Below, one piece after another: positions 49,399 through 64,000 of a stretch of DNA of 64,000 nt; positions within the stretch are counted from its first letter, which is position 1, and each line of letters begins with the position of its first letter. Source of the stretch: Bradyrhizobium ottawaense. GTDB lineage: Bacteria; Pseudomonadota; Alphaproteobacteria; Rhizobiales; Xanthobacteraceae. The notes beneath the pieces were generated by a model. It saw only the letters and a list, made by a program, of their open reading frames with translations. It was not told the DNA's origin and did not search any database. The position numbers and the translations under genes were made by a program. The DNA lies in NCBI RefSeq assembly GCF_002278135.3, contig NZ_CP029425.2:4936001-5000000 (forward strand). Direction: 5' to 3'.

Positions 49399-50571
49399 AT
49401 GAAAAAGTCCCGGCCGATCCTCTGGATTCTGATCATCGCGGCCGTGGCCTCCGCGGGTTACTATGGTTGGCAGAAATTCGGTGCCTCCCAGGCTGGAAAA
49501 GCCCAGACCGCCCAGAAGGGTCCGCCCCGCCCGCCCGCCGTCCCCGTCAGCGTTGCCCCGGTCCAGAAGGTCGATTTCCCAGTCTATCTGACCGGTCTGG
49601 GCACGGTTCAGGGGTTCAACACGGTGCAAGTCCGCACCCGCGTGGATGGCCAGATCGACAAGCTCGCCTTCCGCGAAGGCCAGATCGTCCAGCAGGGCGA
49701 GCTTCTGGTCTCGATCGATCCCCGTCCCTATCAAGCCACGCTCGACCAGGCCAAGGCCAAGAAGGCGCAGGACGAGGCTAGTCTGGCCAACGCCAATCTC
49801 GAGCTTCAGCGCGCCATGAAGCTCGGCGAATTCGCCACCGCCCAGCGGGTCGACACCCAGCGCTCGACCGTCGCCCAGCTCACCGCCCAGATCGCCGCCG
49901 ACGAAGCCGCGATCGCCAACGCCCAGACCCAGCTCGACTACACCCAGGTCAAGGCGCCGATCACCGGCGTCGCCGGCCTGCGCCAGGTCGACATCGGCAA
50001 CATCGTCAACGCCTCGACGCAGACGGGCATCGTCACGATCTCGCAGGTCGAGCCGATCTCCGTGATCTTCACCGCACCGGAAGACCAGCTGCCCTATATC
50101 ACCGAAGGGCAGAAGAGCGGCGCGCTCAAGGTGATCGCCTTCACCACCGACGGCAAGAAGACGCTGGCCGAGGGCAAGCTTGCGGTCATCAACAACCAGG
50201 TCGACACCAGCAGCGGAACGATCCGGCTCAAGGCGGTGTTCGACAACAAGGACCACACGCTGTGGCCGGGTCAGTCGGTCTCGACGCGGCTTCTGGTGCG
50301 GACGCTGAAGGATGCGACCGTGGTTCCGGATGACGCGGTCCAGCATTCGACCAACGGCCTCTACGCCTATACCGTCAATCAGGACAACAAGGCCGAGGTG
50401 CACAAGGTCAAGGTCAGCTACGCCATCGACGGACATTCGGTCATCGAAGAAGGGCTGAGCGCCGGTCAGCAGGTGATCACCGGCGGCCAGTTCAAGGTGC
50501 AGCCCGGAAGCCTCGTCTCGACGACGGTGGCGAGTTCGAACCCGGCCCAGAACAAGGTACGACAGGAATGA
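49399..50571 (+). CDS. RND efflux periplasmic adaptor (MdtA/HlyD type)
   Basis: A 390-aa membrane-fusion protein. An N-terminal anchor helix (WILIIAAVASAGYYGW, about residues 9-24) is followed by a Pro-rich linker, a biotinyl-lipoyl domain (VRTRVDGQIDKLAFREGQIV), a coiled-coil hairpin (about 115-180) and beta-barrel domains (ITGVAGLRQVDIGNIV). It links the inner-membrane pump to an outer-membrane channel. Its stop overlaps the pump gene (ATGA). No outer-membrane factor gene is next to the pair, so a TolC-like channel elsewhere is needed. Confidence 0.92.
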   Translation: MKKSRPILWILIIAAVASAGYYGWQKFGASQAGKAQTAQKGPPRPPAVPVSVAPVQKVDFPVYLTGLGTVQGFNTVQVRTRVDGQIDKLAFREGQIVQQGELLVSIDPRPYQATLDQAKAKKAQDEASLANANLELQRAMKLGEFATAQRVDTQRSTVAQLTAQIAADEAAIANAQTQLDYTQVKAPITGVAGLRQVDIGNIVNASTQTGIVTISQVEPISVIFTAPEDQLPYITEGQKSGALKVIAFTTDGKKTLAEGKLAVINNQVDTSSGTIRLKAVFDNKDHTLWPGQSVSTRLLVRTLKDATVVPDDAVQHSTNGLYAYTVNQDNKAEVHKVKVSYAIDGHSVIEEGLSAGQQVITGGQFKVQPGSLVSTTVASSNPAQNKVRQE

Positions 50572-53500
50572 CCGAGGGCGGGATTTCGGCACCTTTCATC
50601 CGTTATCCCATCGGCACCTCGCTGCTGATGGCCGGCATCCTCTTCGTCGGTCTCGTCGCCTATCCCCTGCTCCCGGTCGCACCGCTGCCGCAGGTCGACT
50701 TCCCGACCATCCAGATCACCGCCAATTTGCCGGGCGGCAGTCCCGAGACGATGGCTTCGTCGGTGGCGCAGCCGCTGGAGCGCCAGTTCGCCCAGATTCC
50801 CGGCATCGCGCAGATGACCTCGACGAGCTATCTGGGCACCGCGTCGATCACCATCCAGTTCGATCTCAACCGCAGCATCGATGGCGCTGCCAATGACGTG
50901 CAGGGCGCCATCAACGCCGCCAGCGGCCAGCTGCCGAAGAACCTGCCGTCGCCGCCGACGTACCGCAAGGTCAACCCGGCTGATGCGCCGATCCTGCTGC
51001 TCTCTGCGACATCGGAGACGTTGCCTCTGACCAGCGTCAGCGACGCGGTCGACGCCCAGCTCGCCCAGCAGATCAGCCAGCTCTCCGGCGTCGCCCAGGT
51101 CTTCATCGGCGGCCAGCAAAAACCCTCCATCCGCGTCCAGGTCGATCCCGCGAAGCTGGTCGCCAAGGGCCTGTCGATGGAGGACGTACGCAGCCAGATC
51201 GCGATCACCACGGTCGACAGTCCGAAGGGCAATATCGACGGCGAGAAGCGCGCCTACACGATCTACGCCAACGACCAGCTCACGCACGCGAAGGACTGGA
51301 ACGACGTCATCATCGCCTATCGCAACGGCGCTCCGTTGCGAATCCGCGACATCGGCCAGGCGGTCAGCGCCGCTGAAGACGCCAAGCAGGCGGCCTGGGC
51401 CAACGGCAAGCGTGGCGTGTTCCTGGTGATATTCAAGCAGCCGGGCGCCAACGTCATCGAGACCGTCGATCGGATCAAGGCCACCCTGCCTCGCCTCGTG
51501 GCCGCGATCCCACCCGCCATCAAGATCGAGCTCATCAGCGACCGCACAACGACCATCCGCGCCGCCGTCGAGGACGTCCAGTTCACGCTGCTGCTGACCA
51601 TCGCCCTCGTGGTCATGGTCATCTTCATCTTCCTGCGCAGCTTCTGGGCCACCGTCATTCCGGCCATCACGGTTCCGCTGGCGCTGCTCGGCGCCTGCGC
51701 GCTGATGTGGGTCGTCGGCTATTCCCTCGACAATCTATCGCTGATGGCACTCACCATCGCGGTCGGATTCGTCGTCGACGATGCCATCGTGATGCTCGAG
51801 AACATCACGCGCTACATCGAGGAAGGCGAATCGCCGATGGCGGCGGCCTTCCGCGGCTCGAAGGAAATCGGTTTCACCATCGTGTCGATCAGCATCTCGC
51901 TGGTCGCAGTGCTGATTCCGCTGCTCTTGATGGGCGGCATCATCGGGCGCCTGTTCCGCGAATTCGCCGTCGTGCTGGCGATGACCATCTTCGTCTCGAT
52001 GTTCGTGTCGCTGACCCTGACGCCGATGATGGCCTCGCGCTTCCTGCGCGCCCATGGCGAGGTGCGCCACGGCCGGTTCTATCAATGGAGCGAGCGCGCC
52101 TTCGACGCGATGCTGCGCGGCTACGAATACGTTCTCGACCATGCCCTCGCCTGGCGGCGCACCACGCTGGCGATCTTCTTCGCCACGCTCGGACTGTCGA
52201 TCTATTTGTTCGTCCTGATCCCGAAGGGTTTCTTCCCGCAGCAGGATGTCGGCCTGATCACGGCGACTTCGGAAGCCTCGCAGGACATTTCGTTCAAGGA
52301 GATGACCCGGCGTCAGGAACAGCTCGGCAAGATCATCCTCGCCGATCCCGATGTCGCCAGCGTCGCCATGTCGATCGGCGGCAGCGGCCGCGCCGGCAAC
52401 AACGGCAACATATTCATCACGCTGAAGGCTCGCGACAAGCGCGATGCCTCGGCTCAGCAGATCATCGCGCGACTGCGTCCCCAGTTCGACAAGGTCGAGG
52501 GCGCCCGCGTCTACATGCAGGCAGCCCAGGACGTGCGCCTCGGCGGACGGCCGACGCGTACGCAGTTCGAATTCACGCTGCAGGACGCCAATCTGGACGA
52601 GCTCAACGAATGGGCGCCCAAAATCCTCGCCAAGATGCAGACGCTGCCGGAGCTGCGCGACGTCGCGACCGACCAGCAGACCCAGGGCACCACGGTCCAG
52701 CTCAAGATCAACCGCGACACCGCCGCGCGCTACGGCATCCAGCCGCAGCTGATCGACGACACGCTGTATGACGCCTTCGGACAACGGCAGATCACGCAGT
52801 ATTTCACCCAGCTCAACACCTACAAGGTGATCCTGGAGATCCTGCCGGAGATGCAGGGCAATCTCGACAGCCTGAACAAGCTCTATCTGAAGTCGCCGCT
52901 GACGGGCGACCAGGTGCCGCTATCGACGTTCGCGACCTGGACCACCGATCCGGTCCGCCCGCTCTCGATCAGCCACCAGGGCCAGTTCCCGGCGATCACC
53001 ATCAGCTTCAACCTCGGCCAGGGCGTCGCGCTCGGTCAGGCGACGGAAGCCGTGCAGAAGGCGATGGCAGATCTCGGCGCGCCGCCGACGCTGAACTCGA
53101 GCTTCCAGGGCACCGCGCAGGCGTTCCAGCAATCGCTCGGCACCGTGCCGCTGCTGATCCTTGCCGCGCTCGTCGTGGTCTACCTGATCCTCGGCATCCT
53201 CTACGAGAGCTACATCCATCCGATCACGATTCTGTCGACCCTGCCCTCGGCAGGCGTCGGCGCGCTTCTGATCCTGATGGCGGCCGGATTCGACTTCAGC
53301 CTCATTGCCTTGATCGGAATCATTCTCCTGATCGGCATCGTGAAGAAGAACGGCATCATGATGGTCGACTTCGCCATCGCCGCCGAACGCGACGAGCACA
53401 AGACGCCGGCGGAATCGATCCGCCAGGCCGCCCTGCTCCGCTTCCGCCCGATCATGATGACGACGATGGCCGCGCTGCTCGGCGGCGTGCCGCTGATGCT

Positions 53501-53714
53501 CGGCCACGGCACCGGCGCCGAGATCCGCCAGCCGCTCGGCTACGCCATGGTCGGCGGCCTGATCGTCAGCCAGGCGCTGACGCTGTTCACCACGCCGGTG
53601 GTCTATCTCTATCTCGACGAGCTCAACAACTGGTTCTCGGGCTGGGGCCGTTCGGGTGACGGCGAAGGCGGCGAGACGGTCGAGCACGGCACCGTTAAGG
53701 AAGCCGCCGAGTAG
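50568..53714 (+). CDS. RND multidrug efflux permease (MdtB/MdtC type)
   Basis: A 1048-aa RND pump with 12 helices and two large periplasmic loops. Proton-relay Asp-Asp is visible in helix 4 (GFVVDDAIVMLENITRYIEE). Conserved blocks include FIRYPIGTSLLMAGI at the N-terminus, IPKGFFPQQDVG and GIVKKNGIMMVDFAI. Unlike E. coli MdtBC only one permease gene follows the adaptor, so it should work as a homotrimer. Likely substrates are bile-salt-like or amphiphilic drugs, by analogy. Confidence 0.93.
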   Translation: MTEGGISAPFIRYPIGTSLLMAGILFVGLVAYPLLPVAPLPQVDFPTIQITANLPGGSPETMASSVAQPLERQFAQIPGIAQMTSTSYLGTASITIQFDLNRSIDGAANDVQGAINAASGQLPKNLPSPPTYRKVNPADAPILLLSATSETLPLTSVSDAVDAQLAQQISQLSGVAQVFIGGQQKPSIRVQVDPAKLVAKGLSMEDVRSQIAITTVDSPKGNIDGEKRAYTIYANDQLTHAKDWNDVIIAYRNGAPLRIRDIGQAVSAAEDAKQAAWANGKRGVFLVIFKQPGANVIETVDRIKATLPRLVAAIPPAIKIELISDRTTTIRAAVEDVQFTLLLTIALVVMVIFIFLRSFWATVIPAITVPLALLGACALMWVVGYSLDNLSLMALTIAVGFVVDDAIVMLENITRYIEEGESPMAAAFRGSKEIGFTIVSISISLVAVLIPLLLMGGIIGRLFREFAVVLAMTIFVSMFVSLTLTPMMASRFLRAHGEVRHGRFYQWSERAFDAMLRGYEYVLDHALAWRRTTLAIFFATLGLSIYLFVLIPKGFFPQQDVGLITATSEASQDISFKEMTRRQEQLGKIILADPDVASVAMSIGGSGRAGNNGNIFITLKARDKRDASAQQIIARLRPQFDKVEGARVYMQAAQDVRLGGRPTRTQFEFTLQDANLDELNEWAPKILAKMQTLPELRDVATDQQTQGTTVQLKINRDTAARYGIQPQLIDDTLYDAFGQRQITQYFTQLNTYKVILEILPEMQGNLDSLNKLYLKSPLTGDQVPLSTFATWTTDPVRPLSISHQGQFPAITISFNLGQGVALGQATEAVQKAMADLGAPPTLNSSFQGTAQAFQQSLGTVPLLILAALVVVYLILGILYESYIHPITILSTLPSAGVGALLILMAAGFDFSLIALIGIILLIGIVKKNGIMMVDFAIAAERDEHKTPAESIRQAALLRFRPIMMTTMAALLGGVPLMLGHGTGAEIRQPLGYAMVGGLIVSQALTLFTTPVVYLYLDELNNWFSGWGRSGDGEGGETVEHGTVKEAAE

Positions 53715-55071: not shown

Positions 55072-55145
55072 TGGCTGGGGAACCTGGATTCGAACCAAGA
55101 CAAACAGAGTCAGAGTCTGTTGTGCTACCGTTACACCATTCCCCA
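55072..55145 (-). tRNA. tRNA-Gln (anticodon CUG)
   Basis: Read on the minus strand: acceptor TGGGGAA pairs with TTCCCCA, discriminator G, and CCA is encoded. The anticodon stem ACAGA/TCTGT encloses the loop CTCTGAC, giving anticodon CTG (Gln, codon CAG). GGTTCGAATCC forms the T loop. Length 74 nt including CCA. Confidence 0.93.
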
Positions 55146-55322: not shown

Positions 55323-56366
55323 TCAACTCTTCCCGAAGGAATCCTGCGGCCCTCTGCGGTTGTAGAACAGCGACCGGCGCACCCGATCGATCCATCGCTG
55401 CAGCGTGAACTCGAAGGCGAGCGCAACGACCGTCGATGCGAGCAGGATGCCCAGGGTTTGAAACAGAATTCGCCAATGGCTCACAATGTGTGGATTGGTC
55501 AGCGTGATCGGATCAAAGAACTGCAGATTGATCGCGATCTGGATGAAGAGAAAATGCGAGAGATAGACGCCATAGGAGGCGTCGCCCAACGCGGTCGACA
55601 GCGGTCCGTTGATTCTCGAGAAAAGCGTCGGAATCACGATGCAGGTTGCGATAACCAGCGGTACGCCCTGAACGATGCCCCCGTGATAGTCGACGTCGGC
55701 ATAGACGTCGCCGAGGAGATAGAGGCAGTACAGGGCCGCGAGCCAGTAGCCCGCTCGCGTCGACCATGTCAGGCGATCTCGCAACGAGAAGAGTACAACG
55801 CCGGTGCCGAAATAGCCGATCTGGCTGTAGAACGGGAAGTAAGCCCATTTCCATTCGTAGACGTGCAGAATGGTCATCTTGATCGTGAAGGCAGCGACCA
55901 CCAATCCGGCGAGCCATTTTCTATTCAGGAGAAGCAAGGCAGGCAGCAGCGCGTAGAAGACGATCTCCGCACTGATCGACCAGGCCTGCGGAACCAGGAG
56001 ATACGTGGTGCTGTGCATGGCCGAATAGAGATCGAGACCCAGCAGCGACAGGTTGATCACATAGGGCCGCTCATCCGTTCTGAGGGAATTGAAGATGCCG
56101 CTCTCGTTCGCCGGATTCCACAGATGTAGCGCGAACGTAGCTGCAAGGACAGCGAGGTAGAACGGATAAAGCCTCGCGAAGCGGCTGGCGAAGAATGCAG
56201 CAGGCCGTCCGGGATAGTGCCGCTCATAGGCGGCGGCCATGTAAAAGCCGCTGATGATGTAGAAGACTTCTACAGCGGCCAAACCTCCGATTGTCTGGTG
56301 AATGACGCCAAATTGGCAATGAAATCCAACGACGATCGCCGCCAGCAGAAAACGAACAGTCCCCAT
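55323..56366 (-). CDS. Acyltransferase 3 family membrane protein (OafA/NodX-like)
   Basis: A 347-aa integral membrane acyltransferase with about ten helices. The family opening is RFLLAAIVVGFHCQFGVIHQ with the His of the catalytic region, FYIISGFYMAAAYE and RFARLYPFYLAV. The end shows DASYGVYLSHFLFIQI. Members O-acetylate surface polysaccharides or Nod-factor-like sugars. Base composition looks less GC-rich than its neighbours and it stands alone beside a tRNA gene, so horizontal gain is possible. The acceptor sugar is unknown. Confidence 0.88.
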   Translation of the reverse strand: MGTVRFLLAAIVVGFHCQFGVIHQTIGGLAAVEVFYIISGFYMAAAYERHYPGRPAAFFASRFARLYPFYLAVLAATFALHLWNPANESGIFNSLRTDERPYVINLSLLGLDLYSAMHSTTYLLVPQAWSISAEIVFYALLPALLLLNRKWLAGLVVAAFTIKMTILHVYEWKWAYFPFYSQIGYFGTGVVLFSLRDRLTWSTRAGYWLAALYCLYLLGDVYADVDYHGGIVQGVPLVIATCIVIPTLFSRINGPLSTALGDASYGVYLSHFLFIQIAINLQFFDPITLTNPHIVSHWRILFQTLGILLASTVVALAFEFTLQRWIDRVRRSLFYNRRGPQDSFGKS

Positions 56367-56474: not shown

Positions 56475-57446
56475 CTACTCCAGCTTGATGTTGGCGGCCT
56501 CGATCACCTTCTTCCAGCGCGCCGTCTCAGCGTTGATGTAGGCCGCGAACGGTTCGGAATCCACGGCGACAGCGGTGGCACCGAGCTCGGCCATCTTCTG
56601 CACCGTCTCCGGTTGCTGCATGAAGGCGCGGATCTCGGCCGAGAGCTTTTCGACGATCGGCTTGGGCGTGCCCGCGGGCACAATGAAACCGTGCCAGGCC
56701 ACCGCCTCGAAGCCGGGCAGGAATTCGGCAACGGCCGGAGCTTCGGGATCGAAGGCGGCGCGCTTCGGCGTTGCCGTCGCGAGCAGCGCGAGCTGGCCGG
56801 TCTTCACCTGCGGCAGCAGCAGCGGAACGTTGTCGAAGGCGAGATCGATCTGGCCGCTGAGCAGGTCCGTCAGCATCTGGCTGGAGCCTTTGTAGGGCAC
56901 GTGCACCATCTTGGTGCCGGTCATCTGCTGGAACAGCTCGCTGGCAAGATGCTGCGAGGTGCCGACACCGGCCGAGCCGAACGAGACCTTGTCCGGATTC
57001 GCCTTCAGATAGGCGATCAGCTCCGGCACGGTACGCGCCTTGATCTTGTTGGGATTGACGACGAGAACGTTGGGCACGACGCTGATCTGGGCGACCGGCA
57101 CCAGGTCCTTGTCCGGCTGGTAGCTGAGCTTCGGCCCGTAGAGCGACGGGTTGATCGCAAGCGCGGACGTGCTGGCAAGGCCGAGCGTGATGCCGTCAGG
57201 CGCCGATTTCGCCACCCGCGTCACGCCGAGGATCGAGCCGGCACCGCCGACATTCTCGACCACGAAAGGCTTGCCGAACTTCGCCTGCAAATGGTTGGAG
57301 ACCATCCGCGCGAAGATATCCGCGGTGCCGCCGGCGGCGAAGGGAACGACCACCGTCACCTGCTTGGACGGATAGCCGTCCTGCGCCTTTGCGGGTGAGG
57401 CCGCCAGCACCAAGGCTGAGGCAAGGACGAGCCAGATCGATCTCAT
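56475..57446 (-). CDS. Bug/TctC family tripartite tricarboxylate transporter binding protein
   Basis: A 323-aa periplasmic binding protein. The signal peptide (about 1-21) ends at SPAKAQDG. The Bug signature follows: YPSKQVTVVVPFAAGGTADI near the N-terminus, NVGGAGSILGVTRVAK, and FGSAGVGTSQHLASELF. Bug proteins capture carboxylates for TctAB-type permeases, but no tctA/tctB gene is here, so it must use permease subunits encoded elsewhere or act in sensing. It is the last gene of a six-gene operon (60-bp gap). Confidence 0.9.
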   Translation of the reverse strand: MRSIWLVLASALVLAASPAKAQDGYPSKQVTVVVPFAAGGTADIFARMVSNHLQAKFGKPFVVENVGGAGSILGVTRVAKSAPDGITLGLASTSALAINPSLYGPKLSYQPDKDLVPVAQISVVPNVLVVNPNKIKARTVPELIAYLKANPDKVSFGSAGVGTSQHLASELFQQMTGTKMVHVPYKGSSQMLTDLLSGQIDLAFDNVPLLLPQVKTGQLALLATATPKRAAFDPEAPAVAEFLPGFEAVAWHGFIVPAGTPKPIVEKLSAEIRAFMQQPETVQKMAELGATAVAVDSEPFAAYINAETARWKKVIEAANIKLE

Positions 57447-57506
57447 AGACGTTTCCTCTGTTTTCCGTGTTGTTGATTGGCTGCCGCGCGCGAGCGGCGA
57501 AGACTG

Positions 57507-58637
57507 TTAGAACGCGACCTCGTACATGTTCAGGATCGCATCCCGGCCGAGGTCGCGCGGATTGTTGTCGAGCAGGCGGCGAATGGCGTGCGCCTCGTCG
57601 GCCATCACGCCGAGATCGTCCCGGGGCACGCCGAGCGCGGATAGCCGCATCTCGATGCCGAGATTCTTGCAGAACCCGTAGGTGGCGTCGAATGCGAGCT
57701 TTGGATCGCCCTTCTCCGGCAGTCCGAGCGCCTGGAGCACCGCGATCGTCTTCGCTTCCACCGCCGGCATGTTGAAGGCCAGCGTATGCGGGAAGATCGC
57801 CGCGCAGGCGAGGCCATGCGCCACGTGGTGACGGGTGCCGAGCGGATACGCCACGGCGTGGCCGGCGGTCGTGTTCACCGGTCCCAGGCAATAGCCGCCG
57901 TAGAGCGAGGCCAGGGAAAGGCCGGCGCGCGCCTCGCGATCGCCGCCATCTGCCACCGCGCGCTTGAGATAGCGGCCGACCAGCCGCGCGCCTTCGAGCG
58001 CGTAGAGGTCGATCGTCGGATGCGCCTTGCGGCTGGTATAGGCCTCGACGCAATGCGCCAGCGCGTCGACCCCGGTCGCCGCGGTGACCTCCTTCGGCAC
58101 GGTCATCGTCAGATCCGGATCGACGATGGCGATGTCGGCCAGCATGAAGCGGCTCTGCACCGCCTGCTTGTTCTGGCTGACGGGATCGGTCACGAGCGCG
58201 CGGGTGCCGGCCTCGCTGCCGGTGCCCGACGTCGTCGGAATCTGCATCAGCGCGACGCTGCGGCCGGCCACCTTCTCCGGCCCGACGATGTCGGCAAAGG
58301 GCACGTCGCTAGTGCACATCACCGCGACCAGCTTGGCGAGATCCATCGCGCTGCCGCCGCCGAAGCCGACCACGAGATCGGGGTTGACGTCCTTCGCCAT
58401 CGCCACCGCCTTCTCGAGATTGGGCAGGTCGGGCTCGGGCTTGACGTCACCGAACACCTTCACCGCACCCGGCAGCGCCAGCATGTCGACGCGGCGTGCG
58501 TTGAACGGATCGGAGATCACCAGCGGCCGCCTGGCACCGATCCGCTCGGCGAAGCGCGCTGCCGCGCCGATCGTGCCGTTGCCGAACTCGAGGATGGTGG
58601 GACGCTGGATTTCAATGGGCGTGAAGGCGTTGGTCAT
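57507..58637 (-). CDS. Iron-containing alcohol dehydrogenase
   Basis: A 376-aa group III alcohol dehydrogenase. NAD-binding GGGSAMDLAKLVAV and TSGTGSEAG are clear, with metal ligands in TGVDALAHCVEAYTS and PLGTRHHVAHGLACA. The family includes maleylacetate reductases, 4-hydroxybutyrate and lactaldehyde dehydrogenases. Within this operon it may reduce or oxidise an aldehyde or semialdehyde intermediate. The ATG at 58637 begins 13 bp after the pdxA2-like stop; upstream residues do not match the family. Confidence 0.9.
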   Translation of the reverse strand: MTNAFTPIEIQRPTILEFGNGTIGAAARFAERIGARRPLVISDPFNARRVDMLALPGAVKVFGDVKPEPDLPNLEKAVAMAKDVNPDLVVGFGGGSAMDLAKLVAVMCTSDVPFADIVGPEKVAGRSVALMQIPTTSGTGSEAGTRALVTDPVSQNKQAVQSRFMLADIAIVDPDLTMTVPKEVTAATGVDALAHCVEAYTSRKAHPTIDLYALEGARLVGRYLKRAVADGGDREARAGLSLASLYGGYCLGPVNTTAGHAVAYPLGTRHHVAHGLACAAIFPHTLAFNMPAVEAKTIAVLQALGLPEKGDPKLAFDATYGFCKNLGIEMRLSALGVPRDDLGVMADEAHAIRRLLDNNPRDLGRDAILNMYEVAF

Positions 58638-58650
58638 CGTGCGTTCGAAC

Positions 58651-59688
58651 TCATGATTTGGATGCAGAAACGCCAGCGGCGAGCCGCTCGGCATAGTCGA
58701 TGGCTTCGATCAGGCTGTGTTCGTTGGCGATGCCCTTGCCGGCGATGTCGAAGGCGGTGCCGTGGTCGACGGAGGTGCGGATGATCGGCAGGCCCAGCGT
58801 GATGTTGACGCCGGACAGTTCCTGCCAGCGGCCGGTCGCGGGATCGACCTGGAAGCCGAGCAGCTTGACGGGGATGTGCCCCTGGTCGTGATACATCGCG
58901 ACCGCCGCATCGTACTGGCCGGCGCGCAGCTTGACGAAGATGGTATCGCCGGGCACGGGGCCGACGACGTCGAGACCGTCGGCGACGGCTTTTGCAATCG
59001 TCGGCGCGGACACGTCGATGTCCTGCCGGCCGAACAAGCCGCCCTCGCCGGCGTGTGGATTGAGCGCGGCAACCGCGATCTTCGGCTTGGCAATGCCGAG
59101 CCGCAGCAGGGCATCGTTGGTGAGGTCGATGACCATGCGCAGCCGCTCCGGCGTCAGACGCTTCGGCACGTCCTCGAGCGCCACATGGGTCGAGACATGG
59201 CTGACGCGCATGTTGCCATGGGCGAGCAGCATCACCGAGCCGCGCACGCCGGTGAGATGCGCCAGCATCTCGGTATGACCCGGGAAGTGATAGCCGGCCC
59301 TGTTGAGCGCTTCCTTGTTGAGCGGCGCCGTGACGATCGCCGCGGTCCGGCCCGCCTGCGTCAGCCGCACGCCCTGCTCGATCGCCTTGTAGGCAAAGCG
59401 GCCGCCATCAGCGCTGAGCACGCCCGGCTTGATCGGATCGCCCTCGATGTCGGCCTGGAGGAAGCAGAGGTTTGGCCAGTCGCGATCCTCGGCGCGCACT
59501 TCGGGAATCGCAATGCCGGCACCAAGTGCGGCTTTCGCGCCATCGAGCGCCGCGCCGCTGCCGATGATCAGCATCCGCAGATCGCCTTTCGCGATCCGGT
59601 CCTTCAGCCCGACGCAGGCCTTGACGATGATCTCCGGCCCGATCCCGGCGGGATCGCCCATGGTGATGGCTAGATGACGAGAGGTCAT
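58651..59688 (-). CDS. pdxA2: PdxA2-like 4-phosphate dehydrogenase (PdxA family)
   Basis: A 345-aa member of the PdxA family. MGDPAGIGPEIIVKA, GYHFPGHTEMLAHLTG, NPHAGEGGLFGRQD and YHDQGHIPVKLLGF carry the metal-binding His/Asp residues. PdxA2 paralogues oxidatively decarboxylate D-threonate or D-erythronate 4-phosphate to DHAP in four-carbon acid-sugar catabolism, rather than serving vitamin B6 synthesis. Its ATG overlaps the stop of the DUF1537 kinase gene (ATGA), the usual pairing in that pathway, which makes PdxA2 more likely than PdxA. Confidence 0.9.
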   Translation of the reverse strand: MTSRHLAITMGDPAGIGPEIIVKACVGLKDRIAKGDLRMLIIGSGAALDGAKAALGAGIAIPEVRAEDRDWPNLCFLQADIEGDPIKPGVLSADGGRFAYKAIEQGVRLTQAGRTAAIVTAPLNKEALNRAGYHFPGHTEMLAHLTGVRGSVMLLAHGNMRVSHVSTHVALEDVPKRLTPERLRMVIDLTNDALLRLGIAKPKIAVAALNPHAGEGGLFGRQDIDVSAPTIAKAVADGLDVVGPVPGDTIFVKLRAGQYDAAVAMYHDQGHIPVKLLGFQVDPATGRWQELSGVNITLGLPIIRTSVDHGTAFDIAGKGIANEHSLIEAIDYAERLAAGVSASKS

Positions 59689-60797
59689 GTCGGACTCCCC
59701 TTGCTTAGCAAATGATTATCCCGAAGCAGGTCGCGCCACAGCTCGCTGGGGCCGAATGCACCGGACTTCGAGATGACATCGACGCCGGCCCAGCGGCCGC
59801 CTTGCAAGATCGAGCGCGGCAACCCCGGCACGATACGTCCTGTCACCTCGAGCGCATGCGCGCCAAGGGCAACGCATGCGGCCTTCAGGGTTTCCCCACC
59901 GGCAACAACCAGCGTGCCCGGCGGTTCGAGTGCCGCGATCAGCCCCGTCATCTCGTGCGCGATCCGCCGCGCCGCCTCGGCCCGCATCAAGCCGTCGGCG
60001 AGGGCGAATTTCACCAGCGCCACGCCCTCGTCGGCCAGCTTGCGCCGAACGCCCGCGTTGCCCTCCCCCTCGGCCAGCGCGATGGTGGCGTGACCACATG
60101 CAGCCAGCTGGGATGCGGTGGCAGCCTGGTCGGAGCCAAACAGCCCCAGCACCGGCCGCTTCAGTTGCGAGGACGCAGCGGCGCCTTGACCGCGGGCAAG
60201 CGCACCGGCCAAGCCGCCGCTCCCACACCACAACACGGGCCCCGGCATGCGCCGCGCCATCTCGACGACGCGATCGAGGTCGAGGTCGCTCTCGGCATCG
60301 AACACCTGAACGCCGCCTTGCGCGAGCGTGTCGGGCGTCCCCTGGCGTGCCTCGATGCCGTCCTGCCGCAATTGATCCAGCAAATTGTCGCCGACCCTGT
60401 GCCAATCGCCATGCACGGTGCGGGCGAATTGCTGGCCACCGACGGTGCGGCGTCCCTGATAATCGAACGCCGGCGCGACCACGCAGGAGGTCCAATGGCC
60501 GCTGCGCAGACAGGCGCCAAGCTCAGCCGCCCACGCGCCCCGAAGGAGGCTATCGACCTTCTTGTAGGCGATCGTCCCGCCCTGAAGGTGGGGCGCCAGT
60601 CGCCCAACGATTTCTACGCTCTCGGTTTTCGAGCGCTCACGGGTGCCGCTATCGATCGCCAGGCTTCCGGACTCCAGCAGCGTAAACGGATCCGACCAGA
60701 GGACGTCGAACGGTCCGCACAGGCCGACGAACTCTGCCGCGGTGTCGAGCGCACCGGTGAGATCGTCGGCAAGCAGGCGGACGCTCGTCATGGTCAT
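59685..60797 (-). CDS. DUF1537 four-carbon acid-sugar kinase
   Basis: A 370-aa kinase of the DtnK/OtnK family. The N-terminal RLLADDLTGALDTAAEF (substrate side), YKKVDSLLRGAWAAE, and C-terminal VAGGETLKAACVALG and ISKSGAFG (ATP side) are present. It is about 50 residues shorter than typical family members. It should phosphorylate a C4 acid sugar at the 4-OH, handing it to PdxA2. It is joined by 4-nt overlaps to the FAD gene upstream and the pdxA2 gene downstream. Confidence 0.88.
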   Translation of the reverse strand: MTMTSVRLLADDLTGALDTAAEFVGLCGPFDVLWSDPFTLLESGSLAIDSGTRERSKTESVEIVGRLAPHLQGGTIAYKKVDSLLRGAWAAELGACLRSGHWTSCVVAPAFDYQGRRTVGGQQFARTVHGDWHRVGDNLLDQLRQDGIEARQGTPDTLAQGGVQVFDAESDLDLDRVVEMARRMPGPVLWCGSGGLAGALARGQGAAASSQLKRPVLGLFGSDQAATASQLAACGHATIALAEGEGNAGVRRKLADEGVALVKFALADGLMRAEAARRIAHEMTGLIAALEPPGTLVVAGGETLKAACVALGAHALEVTGRIVPGLPRSILQGGRWAGVDVISKSGAFGPSELWRDLLRDNHLLSKGSPT

Positions 60798-62233
60798 GCC
60801 GCTCCCGCACCAAAGATCTTGCCGGGATTCATCAGGCCCTTCGGATCGAGCAATCTCTTGATATCGCGCATCAGCTCGATGTCGAGGGGATCGGCGATAC
60901 GGGCGAGCCGGCCGCGATTGGTGACGCCGATGCCGTGCTCGGCACTGATCGCACCGCCCTGCGCTGCGGTCTCGTCGTCGACGATCTCGTTGATTTCAGC
61001 CACCAGCGCAGCCGTCGCCGCCTGGTCCTGGCAACGCGCGCGGTCGATCAGGGCGATCACGTGGATGTTGCCGTCGCCGATATGGCCGTGCATCACGATC
61101 CGCGCGTGCGGTACCGCGGCGTTGATCCGGGCCTCGACATTGGTGACGAAAGCGGCCTGACGCTCCAGCGGAACGACACTGTCGTGCGAGACGACATAGC
61201 CGCTACGCTTGTTGCCTTCGGACACGCTGTGCCGGACAGCCCAGATCGCCTTCGCCTGCGCGAGGTTGACGGCCAGGATCACGTCCTCGGCAAGGCCGGC
61301 GTCCATCGCCTCCGCCAGCACCGTGGCGAGCGGCTCGTCGAGGTCGACGCCGGCGAGCGTGTCGGTCAGTTCGACGATCAGATACCACGGCGTCGTCAGC
61401 TCGAAGGGGATCGTGACATGTGGCACGGACTCTGCGATCGCCTCGATCTGCGCGCGCGACATGATCTCGAGGCTGCCGAGCCGGTCGCCGACCGCGCCGC
61501 GCAGGTGCTGCATGATCTCGAGCGCCTGCTCGACGCCCTGCAGTTTCAGCAGCGCCAGCGCCGAGCTGCGCGGCGGCGCGAACAGCTTCAACACCGCCGC
61601 GGTGATGATGCCGAGCGTGCCCTCTGCCCCGATGAACAGCTGCTTGAGCGCGTAGCCGGTATTGTCCTTGCGCAGTGCGCGCAGGCCGTTGAAGATGCGC
61701 CCGTCGGGCAGCACGACCTCCAGCCCGAGCACGAGATCGCGCGTCGGACCGTAACGCAGCACCGCCGTGCCGCCGGCATTCGTCGAGATATTGCCGCCGA
61801 TCTGGCAGGAGCCTTCGGCACCCAGGCTCAAGGGAAAGTAGCGATCGACGCCGCGCGCCGCGTTTTGCACCTCAGCGAGGATGCAGCCGGCTTCCACTGT
61901 GATCGTGTTCGCGAGGGGGCTGACGTCGCGGACGGCGCGCATCCGGTCGAGCCGGATCACCACATTGCCGGCCCGATCGTCCGGCGTCGCCGCCCCGCAC
62001 ATGCCGGTGTTGCCTCCCTGCGGCACGATCGCGAGCTGCCTTGCCGCACAGAATTTGACGACGGCGGCGACCTCGGCGGTGGAGCCGGGCTTCACCACCG
62101 CGACCGCGCGGCCGTGATAACGCCCGCGCCAGTCTACGACGTAGGCTTCCTGGTCAGCTCCGGACGCAATGACGTGCTTGTCGCCGACGATCGCGGCAAG
62201 CCCGGAGAGCGCGTCCTGGAAGGAATCTGACAT
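60794..62233 (-). CDS. GlcD-like FAD-binding 2-hydroxyacid dehydrogenase
   Basis: A 479-aa flavoenzyme, paralogue of the one at 10881-12356. The FAD domain has VPQGGNTGMCGAATPDD and GGNISTNAGGTAVLRYGPTR. The C-terminal domain has MHGHIGDGNIHVIAL and SAEHGIGVTNRGRL, holding the metal/carboxylate ligands. It would oxidise an alpha-hydroxy acid to the 2-keto acid. In this operon it could supply a 2-keto acid to the DHDPS-family lyase encoded 24 bp upstream. Confidence 0.9.
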   Translation of the reverse strand: MSDSFQDALSGLAAIVGDKHVIASGADQEAYVVDWRGRYHGRAVAVVKPGSTAEVAAVVKFCAARQLAIVPQGGNTGMCGAATPDDRAGNVVIRLDRMRAVRDVSPLANTITVEAGCILAEVQNAARGVDRYFPLSLGAEGSCQIGGNISTNAGGTAVLRYGPTRDLVLGLEVVLPDGRIFNGLRALRKDNTGYALKQLFIGAEGTLGIITAAVLKLFAPPRSSALALLKLQGVEQALEIMQHLRGAVGDRLGSLEIMSRAQIEAIAESVPHVTIPFELTTPWYLIVELTDTLAGVDLDEPLATVLAEAMDAGLAEDVILAVNLAQAKAIWAVRHSVSEGNKRSGYVVSHDSVVPLERQAAFVTNVEARINAAVPHARIVMHGHIGDGNIHVIALIDRARCQDQAATAALVAEINEIVDDETAAQGGAISAEHGIGVTNRGRLARIADPLDIELMRDIKRLLDPKGLMNPGKIFGAGAA

Positions 62234-62257
62234 CGGATCGCCTCGTCGTCGCGCCGC

Positions 62258-63178
62258 CTACAAAGCGACTGCGAATGCCGCAGCATTCGCGAGCAGCTCT
62301 TTCACCTGCTCCGGCGGCAAGCACTCCAGCGGCGGTCGCAGGCTCTGCCATCCGGCATGACCGGTGCGCTCGGCCACCAGTGTCTTCAGCGAGGCCATCT
62401 GCGGGAAGCGCGAGACCAGCTCGCGCGCTTTCACGATGCGCGCCTGCGCCGTCTTGAGCGCCGCGTCGTCGTCGCTATCGCGAAAATGCTTGTAGACATA
62501 AGCAAGGTCCCGCGCGACCAGATTGGAGGTCGCCGTGATGCAGCCGGCGCCGCCCTTGCGCTGCAGCGGCAGCAGCAGTGGATCGGCTCCGACCAGGACC
62601 GAAAAGCCGGGGAAGCGCTCGACCATCGCGGTCATGTTCGCGAAGTCGCCGGAGGAATCCTTGATACCCACGAACGTTGCCGGATAAGCCGTTCGCAGCC
62701 GCTCGATCAGCGCATGCGAGATCGGCTGCGCCGACATCTGCGGGATGTGATAGAGCACGACCTTGAGCCTGGCATCGCCAATGCGCTGCACGATTTCGCT
62801 ATAGGACGCGTAAACGCCATCGTCCGTGACACCCTTATAATAAAACGGCGGCAGCATCACGACGGTGTCGACGCCGACTGAAAGCGCGTGGCGCGTCAGG
62901 GCGATGGTCTCGCTGAACGCGGCAACGCCGGTGCCCGGCAAAAGTCGTTGCGGCGCGATGCCGGCGGCCACCACCGCCTCGAGCAGCGCCATGCGCTCGG
63001 CCGCGGAGAAGGAGTTCGCCTCGCCTGTCGTGCCGAGCAGCGCGATACCGTCGCAGCCCTCATCGAGGAGATAGCGGCAATGCGCGATGAAGCGCGCATG
63101 ATCGGGGGCGAGCTCGGCGTCGAGCGGAGTCAGCGCGGCGGAGAACACGCCATGAGGGTGCAGTGATGGTGTCGACAA
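62258..63178 (-). CDS. Dihydrodipicolinate synthase (DHDPS) family lyase
   Basis: A 306-aa class I aldolase/dehydratase. GTTGE (49-53), Tyr143 in YHIPQM and Schiff-base Lys173 in GIKDSSGD are in place. The family covers DHDPS, KDG aldolase and related pyruvate lyases; its position with acid-sugar genes suggests a 2-keto-acid aldolase or dehydratase rather than lysine synthesis. The start is TTG at 63178, with GGAGGAAG just before it. The in-frame ATG at 63220 lies inside the operator palindrome and lacks a ribosome site. First gene of the operon. Confidence 0.87.
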   Translation of the reverse strand: MSTPSLHPHGVFSAALTPLDAELAPDHARFIAHCRYLLDEGCDGIALLGTTGEANSFSAAERMALLEAVVAAGIAPQRLLPGTGVAAFSETIALTRHALSVGVDTVVMLPPFYYKGVTDDGVYASYSEIVQRIGDARLKVVLYHIPQMSAQPISHALIERLRTAYPATFVGIKDSSGDFANMTAMVERFPGFSVLVGADPLLLPLQRKGGAGCITATSNLVARDLAYVYKHFRDSDDDAALKTAQARIVKARELVSRFPQMASLKTLVAERTGHAGWQSLRPPLECLPPEQVKELLANAAAFAVAL

Positions 63179-63202
63179 ACTTCCTCCGATCGTCAAATCT
63201 GT

Positions 63203-63219
63203 TGTTCGGAATGCGAACA
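63203..63219. promoter_or_regulatory. IclR-type operator of the divergent acid-sugar operon
   Basis: TGTTCGGAATGCGAACA has perfect 6-bp arms (TGTTCG/CGAACA) with a 5-bp spacer. It lies between the DHDPS-family gene (TTG start at 63178) and the iclR gene (start about 63283), so it can control both. A sequence of this kind is the expected IclR-family site. Confidence 0.75.
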
Positions 63220-63282
63220 TTTGTTATTGGCTTGCACCAGTCGTAAAATCAGCTTGCCGCCGCGTCAAGGGCGGTGGCTGTC

Positions 63283-64000
63283 ATGGCAAGGCATTCGAGC
63301 ATGGCCAAGGTCGAAAAGAAGGCCACGAAGCGCAAATCGGAATCGTCCCCGAAAAATCCCAAAAATCATGTCGCGTCCGTCGGCAAGGCCTTTGCCGTGC
63401 TCAAGAGCTTCAGCAGCGAAGCCTTTGAGCTCACCCTGAGTGAGATTGCCGCACGGGCGGATCTCGATCGCGGAACGGCGTTCCGGCTGATCCAGACCCT
63501 GACCGAACTCGGCTATCTGCAAGCCGTGCCGCAGAGCCGCCGGTTCCGCCTCGGCGTTGCCTGCCTCGACCTCGGCTACACCGTGCTGTCGCACGGATCG
63601 CTAAGGCCGATGGTCGAGCCGTTGCTGCGAGATCTCGTGCCCGATGTCGGCGATGCGGCTTCGCTCGGCATCCTCGACGGCGGTGACGTGGTCTATCTCG
63701 CGCGCGTCGGCGCGGGCCTCGACCGCCACAAGATGGATCGCCGGCCCGGCACGCGCATTCCCGCCTATAGCGCCGCGCTCGGTCATGTCATGCTGGCACA
63801 TCTGGCGCGGGACGAGCAGATCGAGCGACTGGAATCGCGCCCTCGCGTCAAACTGTCGGAACGGACGCTGACCGATCTCGATGCCCTGCTCGCCCGGCTC
63901 GATCAGGTGAAAAAGAAAGGCCACGCCGTCTCCGACGGGGAGAACGCCTACGGCCTGCGCACGCTGGCAACGCCGATCTTCGACGCCCAGGGCCTCGTGA
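63283..64000 (+). CDS. IclR family transcriptional regulator (partial, 3' end beyond the window)
   Basis: The first 239 or so residues are visible. A basic N-terminus (KKATKRKSESS) is followed by a winged helix-turn-helix at about 35-95 (SVGKAFAVLKSF, TLSEIAARADLDRGTAFRLI) and the start of the IclR effector domain (LRPMVEPLLRDLV, YSAALGHVMLAHL). The ATG at 63283 or the in-frame ATG at 63301 may start it. Divergent from the six-gene acid-sugar operon, with a perfect palindrome between, it is its likely regulator. Confidence 0.88.
   Translation, partial: MARHSSMAKVEKKATKRKSESSPKNPKNHVASVGKAFAVLKSFSSEAFELTLSEIAARADLDRGTAFRLIQTLTELGYLQAVPQSRRFRLGVACLDLGYTVLSHGSLRPMVEPLLRDLVPDVGDAASLGILDGGDVVYLARVGAGLDRHKMDRRPGTRIPAYSAALGHVMLAHLARDEQIERLESRPRVKLSERTLTDLDALLARLDQVKKKGHAVSDGENAYGLRTLATPIFDAQGLV

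What the first reader, a model, noticed from the sequence alone, without database searches (positions are those of the whole stretch)
56475..63219. Six-gene operon for an unassigned acid-sugar pathway under an IclR regulator
Directly seen: DHDPS-family lyase, GlcD-like FAD dehydrogenase, DUF1537 kinase, PdxA2, iron alcohol dehydrogenase and a Bug binding protein run in one direction. Junctions are 24 bp, two ATGA overlaps, 13 bp and 60 bp. Known: DUF1537 kinase plus PdxA2 convert D-threonate or D-erythronate to DHAP. Inference: the added DHDPS-like lyase, FAD dehydrogenase and Fe-ADH point to a branched or longer route, e.g. oxidation and cleavage of a larger hydroxy acid giving a C4 acid sugar plus pyruvate or an aldehyde. 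I know of no described pathway with this exact set.
Basis: partly seen in the sequence, partly recalled or inferred. Interest (0 to 1): 0.75.

Follow-up and report, generated by a model that had tools for sequence, protein, structure and literature searches.

The report
Predicted pectin Dha-sugar catabolic operon
A soil bacterium of the Bradyrhizobium kind carries a conserved, specifically regulated set of genes that most likely digests Dha, a rare seven-carbon acid sugar found in plant pectin, by splitting it into pyruvate and a four-carbon acid that enters central metabolism; I found no published pathway for breaking this sugar down.

Summary
The operon is real. All six genes, their order and the stated junctions are confirmed; DHDPS probably starts at TTG 63178, below an operator. 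IclR plus five enzymes stand together in 47 of 62 Bradyrhizobium-type loci. A wider module recurs in other Proteobacteria, in 1043 of 5426 complete E. coli genomes and on an Enterococcus plasmid: pyruvate aldolase, iron alcohol dehydrogenase, DUF1537 kinase, PdxA2, usually with a sialidase-like gene, in some with a carboxylate transporter or NanQ-like gene. The aldolase is one of three non-orthologous types. One 17-bp palindrome, unique in the 8.59-Mb genome, precedes the operon in 56 of 58 loci and an unlinked symporter-sialidase-SDR island in 9 of 9 examined. Best reading: a sialic-acid-like lyase pathway joined to the D-threonate route, for Dha (3-deoxy-D-lyxo-2-heptulosarate, from the pectin rhamnogalacturonan II): aldolase gives pyruvate + D-threuronate, the iron enzyme reduces the latter to D-threonate, kinase and PdxA2 give DHAP + CO2. 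Stereochemistry, carbon count and redox balance fit. No step is shown biochemically. FAD dehydrogenase + Bug look like an alternative entry to the sialidase island.

The parts
63274..64000 (+). IclR-family regulator, divergent from the operon; cut by the window end (whole gene 286 aa in L005)
   Evidence: Pfam PF09339/PF01614; complete ORF in L005 1274-2134
63203..63219 (.). Candidate IclR operator TGTTCG-GAATG-CGAACA
   Evidence: perfect in 56 of 58 Bradyrhizobium-type loci; only site in the 8.59-Mb genome, reversed control 0; same 17-mer 63-65 bp before SSS in 9 of 9 unlinked sialidase islands examined
63183..63187 (-). Ribosome-binding site GGAGG of the DHDPS gene
   Evidence: seen in most of the 58 sequences printed
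62258..63178 (-). DHDPS-family pyruvate aldolase, type A (306 aa from TTG); predicted Dha lyase
   Evidence: PF00701; GTTGE, Tyr138 and Lys168 (A3 numbering) kept
60794..62233 (-). GlcD/D-2-hydroxyglutarate-dehydrogenase-like FAD enzyme; alternative entry step
   Evidence: PF01565/PF02913; best solved relatives 3pm9 405 bits and D-2-hydroxyglutarate dehydrogenase 311 bits; not core
59685..60797 (-). DUF1537 four-carbon acid sugar kinase; predicted D-threonate kinase
   Evidence: PF07005/PF17042; best NCBIfam NF047819 D-threonate kinase, below its cut-off
58651..59688 (-). PdxA2; predicted D-threonate 4-phosphate dehydrogenase/decarboxylase
   Evidence: PF04166; best solved relatives 2hi1 (PdxA 2, 262.9 bits), 4jqp (256.9) and 6e85 (D-threonate 4-phosphate dehydrogenase, 255.5), against 188.2 for 1ps7
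57507..58637 (-). Iron-containing alcohol dehydrogenase; predicted D-threuronate reductase
   Evidence: PF00465/PF25137; present in 34 of 34 aldolase-bearing and 0 of 6 aldolase-less kinase+PdxA loci of the table
56475..57446 (-). Bug/TctC periplasmic binding protein, orphan (no TctA beside it)
   Evidence: PF03401; seven TctA matches in the genome, none near

Best explanation
A catabolic operon for Dha (3-deoxy-D-lyxo-2-heptulosarate), a sugar of pectic rhamnogalacturonan II. (1) The DHDPS-type enzyme cleaves Dha to pyruvate + D-threuronate (a C4 aldehyde acid). (2) Fe-ADH reduces D-threuronate to D-threonate. (3) The DUF1537 kinase makes D-threonate 4-phosphate. (4) PdxA2 oxidises and decarboxylates it to DHAP + CO2. 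NAD(P)H spent in step 2 comes back in step 4. Bug + FAD (in the operon), or the IclR-controlled SSS-sialidase-SDR island (elsewhere in other strains), supply Dha from different precursors. IclR senses the substrate at one palindrome. Shown here: gene content, conservation, the gene-association pattern, non-orthologous aldolases, the shared palindrome. Inferred: every reaction, the substrate, and that IclR binds and in which sense it regulates.
For: The module is conserved outside Bradyrhizobium. Of 40 table loci with kinase + PdxA, 34 have a pyruvate aldolase and all 34 have Fe-ADH; the 6 without an aldolase have no Fe-ADH and no sialidase, and all 6 have an rbs-type sugar permease (2 of the 34 also have one nearby). 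In the sample drawn by the kinase alone, 14 of 297 genomes have a relative: 8 with aldolase + Fe-ADH, 6 with neither. In the sample drawn by the sialidase-like protein, 25 genomes (19 of 199 and 9 of 349, three in both), 23 have an aldolase, 21 a kinase, 20 PdxA and 18 Fe-ADH in the region read. Three aldolase types fill the same slot: DHDPS A, DHDPS B (27-31% identical) and class II HpcH/HpaI, which points to pyruvate aldol cleavage. Sialidase-like BNR_2 genes and, in Enterobacteria, a YhcH/NanQ-family gene sit in the clusters, as in sialic-acid operons; a 2025 review says that Dha resembles sialic acid and, in plants, is known only from RG-II (PMC12168206, passages). Transporters include the carboxylate families TctC/Bug and CitMHS/SLC13. 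In E. coli the same cluster bears the RefSeq names D-threonate kinase and D-threonate 4-phosphate dehydrogenase. Fischer bookkeeping: retro-aldol of D-lyxo Dha, then aldehyde reduction, gives D-threonate. DHDPS B keeps, in 9 of 10 sequences aligned, the Arg (YNIPARTGN/YDIPSRTQN) that, recalled, binds the carboxylate of aspartate semialdehyde, a C4 aldehyde acid. One palindrome precedes operon and island. Fe-ADH is kept in 53 of 53 Bradyrhizobium-type genomes with FAD (in the operon) or sialidase (anywhere) and lost in 5 of 6 with neither.
Against: No biochemical or growth data. The window's own genome has no sialidase-like gene, so the ulosonic-acid clue comes from relatives and from the regulon in sister strains. 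The window's DHDPS (type A) lacks the DapA Arg (YHIPQ), and so does one of ten type B sequences (G175). Its kinase scores 102.6 against a cut-off of 450 for D-threonate kinase, and its PdxA 298.4 against 583 for D-threonate 4-phosphate dehydrogenase. The FAD enzyme and the SDR have no settled step. Carboxylate-type transporters are the minority: of 43 aldolase loci of the table, 8 have Bug and 2 SLC13, but 22 an oligopeptide-type ABC protein and 6 SSS. DHDPS relatives of lower score often have no kinase, PdxA or Fe-ADH nearby (12 of 12 such loci annotated). G175, G149 and G119 have sialidase + kinase + aldolase but no PdxA or Fe-ADH in the region read, G180 has sialidase + kinase only, G058 and G095 lack kinase and Fe-ADH, Roseomonas lacks kinase and PdxA. 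L021 keeps Fe-ADH with neither entry enzyme. A 3-deoxy-D-xylo heptulosarate would also give D-threonate.
Confidence: 0.62

Rival explanations
1. A lyase pathway of the same logic (pyruvate + C4 aldehyde acid, then D-threonate or D-erythronate to DHAP), but the true substrate is another C7 3-deoxy-2-keto diacid or its 2-hydroxy precursor, the FAD enzyme making the 2-keto acid.
For: No sialidase-like gene in this genome; a FAD enzyme related to D-2-hydroxyglutarate dehydrogenase is present, and in the wider table FAD and sialidase never share an aldolase locus (0 of 43; only 5 have FAD, 3 of them of the window's genus).
Against: The same palindrome stands before the sialidase island in sister strains, so the regulon is tied to the ulosonic-type gene set; Dha is the only natural C7 compound of this kind that I can name (recalled).
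Confidence: 0.18
2. The kinase-PdxA2 pair serves D-threonate or D-erythronate alone; the other genes are an unrelated carboxylate pathway that shares a regulator.
For: Kinase + PdxA also occur with rbs-type sugar ABC genes and no aldolase (G099, G045, G050, G077, G278, M. ciceri), and without the other operon genes in two Bradyrhizobium loci (L046, L070).
Against: 34 of 34 aldolase-bearing against 0 of 6 aldolase-less kinase+PdxA loci have Fe-ADH, and 53 of 53 against 1 of 6 Bradyrhizobium-type genomes keep Fe-ADH; ATGA overlaps couple FAD, kinase and PdxA2.
Confidence: 0.1
3. Vitamin B6 salvage: the kinase phosphorylates 4-hydroxythreonine for PdxA, as proposed for DUF1537 proteins and as PMC12928451 reads the E. 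coli cluster.
For: STM0162 (DUF1537) phosphorylates 4-hydroxy-L-threonine (PMC10971088, passages; DUF1537 and 4-hydroxythreonine also in PMC7954711, passages).
Against: It gives no role to aldolase, Fe-ADH, sialidase, NanQ-like gene or carboxylate transporter; the genome has two further PdxA genes; PMC7954711 itself says that another study found DUF1537 enzymes rather in acid-sugar catabolism.
Confidence: 0.04
4. Catabolism of Kdo or another sialic-acid-like ulosonate.
For: Sialidase-like, NanQ-like and lyase genes suit any 3-deoxy-2-ulosonate.
Against: Kdo lyase would give D-arabinose (C5, recalled); reducing it does not give a substrate for a tetronate kinase and PdxA2, and I see no gene in the operon that bridges the gap.
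Confidence: 0.06

Closest known systems
D-threonate catabolism by DtnK + PdxA2 (Zhang et al. 2016, recalled, not held; DtnK named in PMC10971088, passages)
   Same: DUF1537 kinase and PdxA2, adjacent and ATGA-overlapped; predicted end product DHAP + CO2.
   Different: Here an aldolase and Fe-ADH accompany the pair, and the transporter differs; the six aldolase-less kinase+PdxA loci of my table have rbs-type ABC genes.
nan operons for sialic acid (lyase NanA, anomerase NanQ/YhcH, sialidase, SSS or other transporter; recalled)
   Same: In relatives: NanA-superfamily lyase, YhcH-family gene, sialidase-like gene and SSS or SLC13 transporter together.
   Different: Downstream are Fe-ADH, tetronate kinase and PdxA2. 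The 20 kb around the window's operon (L004) has neither sialidase-like nor YhcH hit.
E. coli BEN2908 genomic region 6 (PMC12928451, passages read)
   Same: Same gene families: DapA-like, Fe-ADH, OtnK/DtnK-like, PdxA2, COG4692 sialidase, an ORF 32.69% identical to NanQ, CitT-like; the authors note a similar S. meliloti cluster.
   Different: The authors read the DUF1537-PdxA2 pair as vitamin B6 metabolism, and the passages I read propose no pathway or substrate.
Dihydrodipicolinate synthase DapA (recalled chemistry)
   Same: Family, Schiff-base Lys motif; DapA joins pyruvate and a C4 aldehyde acid into a C7 diacid, the reverse of the step proposed here.
   Different: Below the dapA cut-off (135.8 against 206.15); type A lacks the DapA Arg.
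Oxo-tetronate (Otn) operon for D-erythronate/L-threonate (recalled)
   Same: DUF1537 kinase; one such-looking operon lies elsewhere in this genome (L179).
   Different: Has a 6PGDH-like dehydrogenase and a xylose-isomerase-like protein; no PdxA2 or aldolase was found in the 17 kb read.

Membership tests
DUF1537 D-threonate kinase (DtnK) | PF07005 + PF17042 domains | tested here: met
   71.1 and 45.1 bits, cut-offs 25 and 28.3
DUF1537 D-threonate kinase (DtnK) | NCBIfam equivalog NF047819 cut-off | tested here: not met
   102.6 against 450 for the window; the R. leguminosarum relative also misses it, 138.8; the E. coli relative bears the RefSeq name dtnK
DUF1537 D-threonate kinase (DtnK) | ATP-dependent 4-phosphorylation of D-threonate | not testable with these tools
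   needs enzyme assay
PdxA2 (D-threonate 4-phosphate dehydrogenase) | PdxA family, partner of a DUF1537 kinase | tested here: met
   PF04166 341.6 bits; ATGA overlap with the kinase; beside the kinase in 62 of 62 Bradyrhizobium-type loci
PdxA2 (D-threonate 4-phosphate dehydrogenase) | NCBIfam NF002891 cut-off | tested here: not met
   298.4 against 583; it does pass the general pdxA model TIGR00557, 355.6 against 290.35
DHDPS/N-acetylneuraminate lyase superfamily | PF00701, GTTGE-type loop, Tyr and Schiff-base Lys | tested here: met
   invariant T45, T46, Y138, K168 in the six sequences of A3; motifs (catalytic roles recalled)
DapA proper | dapA equivalog cut-off and the Arg after YxxP | tested here: not met
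   135.8 against 206.15; YHIPQM, no Arg
Sialic-acid (nan) catabolic operon | lyase with sialidase and anomerase genes in the same locus | tested here: not met
   no sialidase-like gene in the window genome and no YhcH hit in L004 (YhcH not searched genome-wide); present in relatives L217-L219, L222, L223
Iron-containing alcohol dehydrogenase | PF00465/PF25137 | tested here: met
   126.0 and 146.4 bits; none of the 15 NCBIfam models matched reaches its cut-off
IclR regulon | regulator gene plus one conserved palindrome before operon and island | tested here: met
   binding itself not tested

The most novel reading that the evidence does not exclude
This is a dedicated bacterial route for Dha, a sugar known in plants only from rhamnogalacturonan II: Dha lyase, threuronate reductase, D-threonate kinase, PdxA2. 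It is spread among rhizobia, other plant-associated Proteobacteria, about a fifth of complete E. coli genomes and an Enterococcus, with two interchangeable upstream modules (FAD + Bug, or symporter + sialidase-like hydrolase + SDR) under one IclR operator in Bradyrhizobium. The sialidase-like family would then be a cytoplasmic enzyme for Dha ketosides.
Probability: 0.5. Interest if true: 0.85.

Novelty: new variant of a known kind. Interest (0 to 1): 0.72.

Why it matters
It would assign a substrate and a step order to a gene cluster that is widespread in rhizobia and present in 1043 of 5426 complete E. coli genomes, where it is now named piecemeal or read as vitamin B6 metabolism (PMC12928451, passages). 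It offers a route by which rhizosphere and gut bacteria could use one of the rarest sugars of pectin, gives candidate enzymes to make and analyse Dha (a 2025 review notes that Dha standards are lacking; PMC12168206, passage), and gives a possible function to a sialidase-like family in bacteria that meet plants rather than animals.

Tried and rejected
Plain D-threonate or D-erythronate scavenging: loci that look like that are different (rbs-type ABC, no aldolase, no Fe-ADH). Vitamin B6 salvage: leaves most genes unexplained. Kdo: carbon count does not reach a tetronate. Dehydratase reading of DHDPS (KdgD-like): weak NCBIfam score (61.4 against 373.95), and a class II aldolase replaces it in G087. 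DHDPS subfamily score alone as a marker: rejected, since 12 of 12 lower-scoring loci annotated show no kinase, PdxA or Fe-ADH. Structure prediction was not run: a DHDPS fold would not discriminate substrates. The FAD enzyme as an obligatory step: rejected, since 13 of 60 DHDPS-bearing Bradyrhizobium-type loci lack it. Zhang et al. 2016 (PMC4961189) is not held, so what it says is recalled.

Rows dropped before counts: the 52-locus table (my notebook wrote 54, the count is 52) leaves out 15 fetched DHDPS loci of other subfamilies, L152-L162, L165, L166, L167 and L169; 12 of them were annotated, while L157, L159 and L161 were never annotated. Wide regions were fetched for only part of the DHDPS hits (85 of 385 and 20 of 398 genomes), but for all 25 genomes with a sialidase hit. 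G112 appears twice (two loci). G035 was fetched later (L235) and is not in the table. In one search an aldolase of the HpcH type counts only above 150 bits; G261 has a distant HpcH-type hit (28%) below that and is counted as without. G023 and Pantoea (L223) show no kinase in the stretch read. Of 62 Bradyrhizobium-type genomes, 3 (L029, L053, L065) were not held. In one search the FAD gene was looked for in the operon region only, the sialidase in the whole genome. Operator counts use the 58 of 62 loci with both DHDPS and IclR; the two imperfect ones (L067, L069) differ at the first base. The sialidase islands examined are 9 of 26. These genomes are closely related, so the P values printed are not independent-sample values. 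Paper listings were capped in two searches: 40 of 54 papers listed, 20 of 23.


Full report
OBSERVATION. The six genes, their strand, order and junctions are as described: DHDPS-FAD 24 bp, FAD-kinase ATGA overlap, kinase-PdxA2 ATGA overlap, PdxA2-FeADH 13 bp, FeADH-Bug 60 bp. Pfam confirms each family over its curated cut-off. The DHDPS open frame begins at ATG 63220, but the better start is TTG 63178 behind GGAGG: this leaves a perfect palindrome (63203-63219) outside the gene, and the resulting N-terminus resembles the relatives'. The genome is one 8.59-Mb contig; the nearest named record among those returned is Bradyrhizobium sp. Rc3b (94% for the kinase; very near genomes may be left out there).

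CONSERVATION IN THE GENUS. The kinase finds 62 loci in the species-representative collection: 60 titled Bradyrhizobium, L023 Bradyrhizobiaceae, L021 Frankia sp. I call them Bradyrhizobium-type. IclR, DHDPS, FAD, kinase, PdxA2 and Fe-ADH are together in 47 of 62; DHDPS in 60 of 62; Fe-ADH in 57 of 62; FAD is missing in 15 of 62, of which 13 have DHDPS.

CONSERVATION OUTSIDE. Roseomonas has aldolase, Fe-ADH, sialidase and Bug but no kinase or PdxA nearby. In E. coli the 8.7-kb cluster is in 1043 of 5426 complete genomes at 80% coverage or more, and RefSeq names two of its genes D-threonate kinase and D-threonate 4-phosphate dehydrogenase.

THE MODULE TEST. In a 52-locus table, 40 loci have kinase + PdxA; 34 of them have an aldolase, and all 34 have Fe-ADH; the 6 without an aldolase have no Fe-ADH, no sialidase, and all have an rbs-type sugar permease (2 of the 34 have one too). 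The table mixes loci found by different queries, so two samples drawn by one query matter more. Drawn by the kinase: 14 of 297 order genomes have a relative, 8 with aldolase + Fe-ADH and 6 with neither (G035); the 8 include four of the window's genus, and one of the 6 (G261) has a distant HpcH-type hit. Drawn by the sialidase-like protein: 25 genomes, of which 23 have an aldolase, 21 a kinase, 20 PdxA and 18 Fe-ADH in the region read.

WHAT THE ALDOLASE SLOT SAYS. Three unrelated or distant proteins fill it: DHDPS type A (window), DHDPS type B (27-31% identical; Azospirillum, E. coli, Sinorhizobium, others) and a class II HpcH/HpaI aldolase (G087). The chemistry these families share is aldol cleavage giving pyruvate (family knowledge). 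Type B keeps, in 9 of 10 sequences aligned, the Arg that in DapA binds the carboxylate of aspartate semialdehyde (motif; role recalled), which suits an aldehyde that is itself a C4 acid.

WHAT THE NEIGHBOURS SAY. A BNR_2 sialidase-like protein accompanies the module in 28 of 34 aldolase + kinase + PdxA loci. Its profile matches 20 solved chains at E 0.001 or less; 19 are named sialidase or neuraminidase and one BNR/Asp-box repeat protein; 5mqr, named beta-L-arabinobiosidase, matches weakly (E 0.0054; recalled as BT1020, which includes a Dha hydrolase). By eye its N-terminus has no signal-like stretch. Enterobacterial versions add a YhcH/YjgK/YiaL protein (PF04074); the E. coli one is 32.69% identical to NanQ by the table of PMC12928451. 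Transporters are TctC/Bug, SSS, SLC13 (PF03600 citrate transporter), MFS or, most often, oligopeptide-type ABC (22 of 43 aldolase loci). This is the outfit of a sialic-acid-type (3-deoxy-2-ulosonic acid) pathway, yet the end is a tetronate kinase and PdxA2.

CHEMISTRY. No dehydratase is in the operon, so the 2-keto-3-deoxy acid must arrive ready-made or by oxidation. A C7 3-deoxy-2-ketodiacid gives pyruvate + a C4 aldehyde acid; reducing the aldehyde gives a tetronate. For Dha the tetronate is D-threonate (Fischer bookkeeping), the substrate of DtnK (PMC10971088, passages). PdxA2 then gives DHAP + CO2 (recalled), returning the NAD(P)H. A review states that Dha, in plants, is known only from RG-II and resembles sialic acid (PMC12168206, passages).

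REGULON. TGTTCG-N5-CGAACA stands before DHDPS in 56 of 58 Bradyrhizobium-type loci and once in the window genome (reversed control 0; with 2 mismatches the window holds 3 sites, chance 2.87). Of 59 genomes held, 26 carry a sialidase gene elsewhere. The 9 examined are all SSS-sialidase-SDR islands with the identical palindrome and spacer 63-65 bp before SSS. All 26 of those genomes have the IclR gene in the operon (rows). Two-mismatch versions lie near the SDR and IclR genes of Roseomonas and near IclR-DHDPS of G282; these could be chance.

ALTERNATIVE ENTRY MODULES. Among 43 aldolase loci of the table, 36 have the sialidase, 5 have FAD (3 of them of the window's genus), 2 neither, 0 both. At genome level both can coexist (17 of 44 FAD-bearing genomes with Fe-ADH also have a sialidase gene), but FAD-less strains that keep Fe-ADH have it in 9 of 10, and Fe-ADH is kept in 53 of 53 genomes with FAD or sialidase and lost in 5 of 6 with neither (uncorrected for kinship). 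So I read FAD + Bug and SSS + sialidase + SDR as two supply lines to one lyase. Which precursors they act on is open; the FAD enzyme's nearest solved relatives include D-2-hydroxyglutarate dehydrogenase, so a 2-hydroxy diacid is my guess.

AGAINST. No assay. The window's kinase and PdxA miss the strict D-threonate models. Type A aldolase lacks the DapA Arg. G175, G149 and G119 have sialidase + kinase + aldolase without PdxA or Fe-ADH in the stretch fetched, and G180 has sialidase + kinase only. G236 has DHDPS + FAD + Bug without kinase, PdxA or Fe-ADH. In G058 and G095 an SDR stands beside PdxA, aldolase and sialidase, with no kinase or Fe-ADH. Lower-scoring DHDPS relatives lack the partners in 12 of 12 loci annotated.

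KNOWN OR NEW. Ten paper searches listed no paper whose title, abstract start or passages describe Dha catabolism or this pathway; I saw listings (40 of 54 and 20 of 23 papers) and the passages cited, not full texts, and most subscription papers are not held. PMC12928451 (passages) lists the E. coli cluster and a similar S. meliloti one and reads the DUF1537-PdxA2 pair as B6 metabolism. Each enzyme family is known; the assembly and substrate appear new.

VERDICT. A real, conserved, specifically regulated catabolic module; lyase-to-D-threonate logic likely (about 0.8), Dha as substrate more likely than not (about 0.6).

Noticed in passing
window 50568-53714 (+): Large RND-type efflux transporter ORF (1048 aa), judged by eye; a similar ORF lies near the operon in L026 and L040.
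   Followed up: no
window 55072-55145 (-): The only tRNA gene of the window, tRNA-Gln(CTG), lies close to the operon's downstream end.
   Followed up: no
window 55323-56366 (-): Acyltransferase-3 family gene (PF01757) downstream on the same strand; next to the operon in only 1 of 62 loci (L011; L015 has it several kb away), so not part of it.
   Followed up: partly
L007 10071-15700 (own genome, about 4.553 Mb): Another PdxA-family gene beside TctA, TctC and a class III CoA-transferase: perhaps a separate, unassigned carboxylate pathway.
   Followed up: partly
L179 7533-10518 (own genome, about 5.987 Mb): Second DUF1537 kinase with a xylose-isomerase-like and a 6PGDH-like gene, which looks like an ordinary oxo-tetronate operon.
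   Followed up: partly
L163 7263-8150: Class II HpcH/HpaI aldolase in place of DHDPS in the same kinase-PdxA2-FeADH-sialidase cluster; the sialidase match there has a stop inside.
   Followed up: yes
L222 9860-10582: A TerC-family membrane protein gene inserted in the E. coli cluster between the aldolase and the sialidase-like gene; role unknown.
   Followed up: no
L215, L216, L220, L221: Divergent clusters: sialidase-like + DUF1537 kinase + oligopeptide-type ABC, three of four with a DHDPS type B relative, without PdxA or Fe-ADH nearby: perhaps a related pathway for a different sugar.
   Followed up: partly
L207, L208: An SDR stands beside PdxA-aldolase-sialidase where Fe-ADH is missing, perhaps a non-orthologous reductase.
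   Followed up: partly
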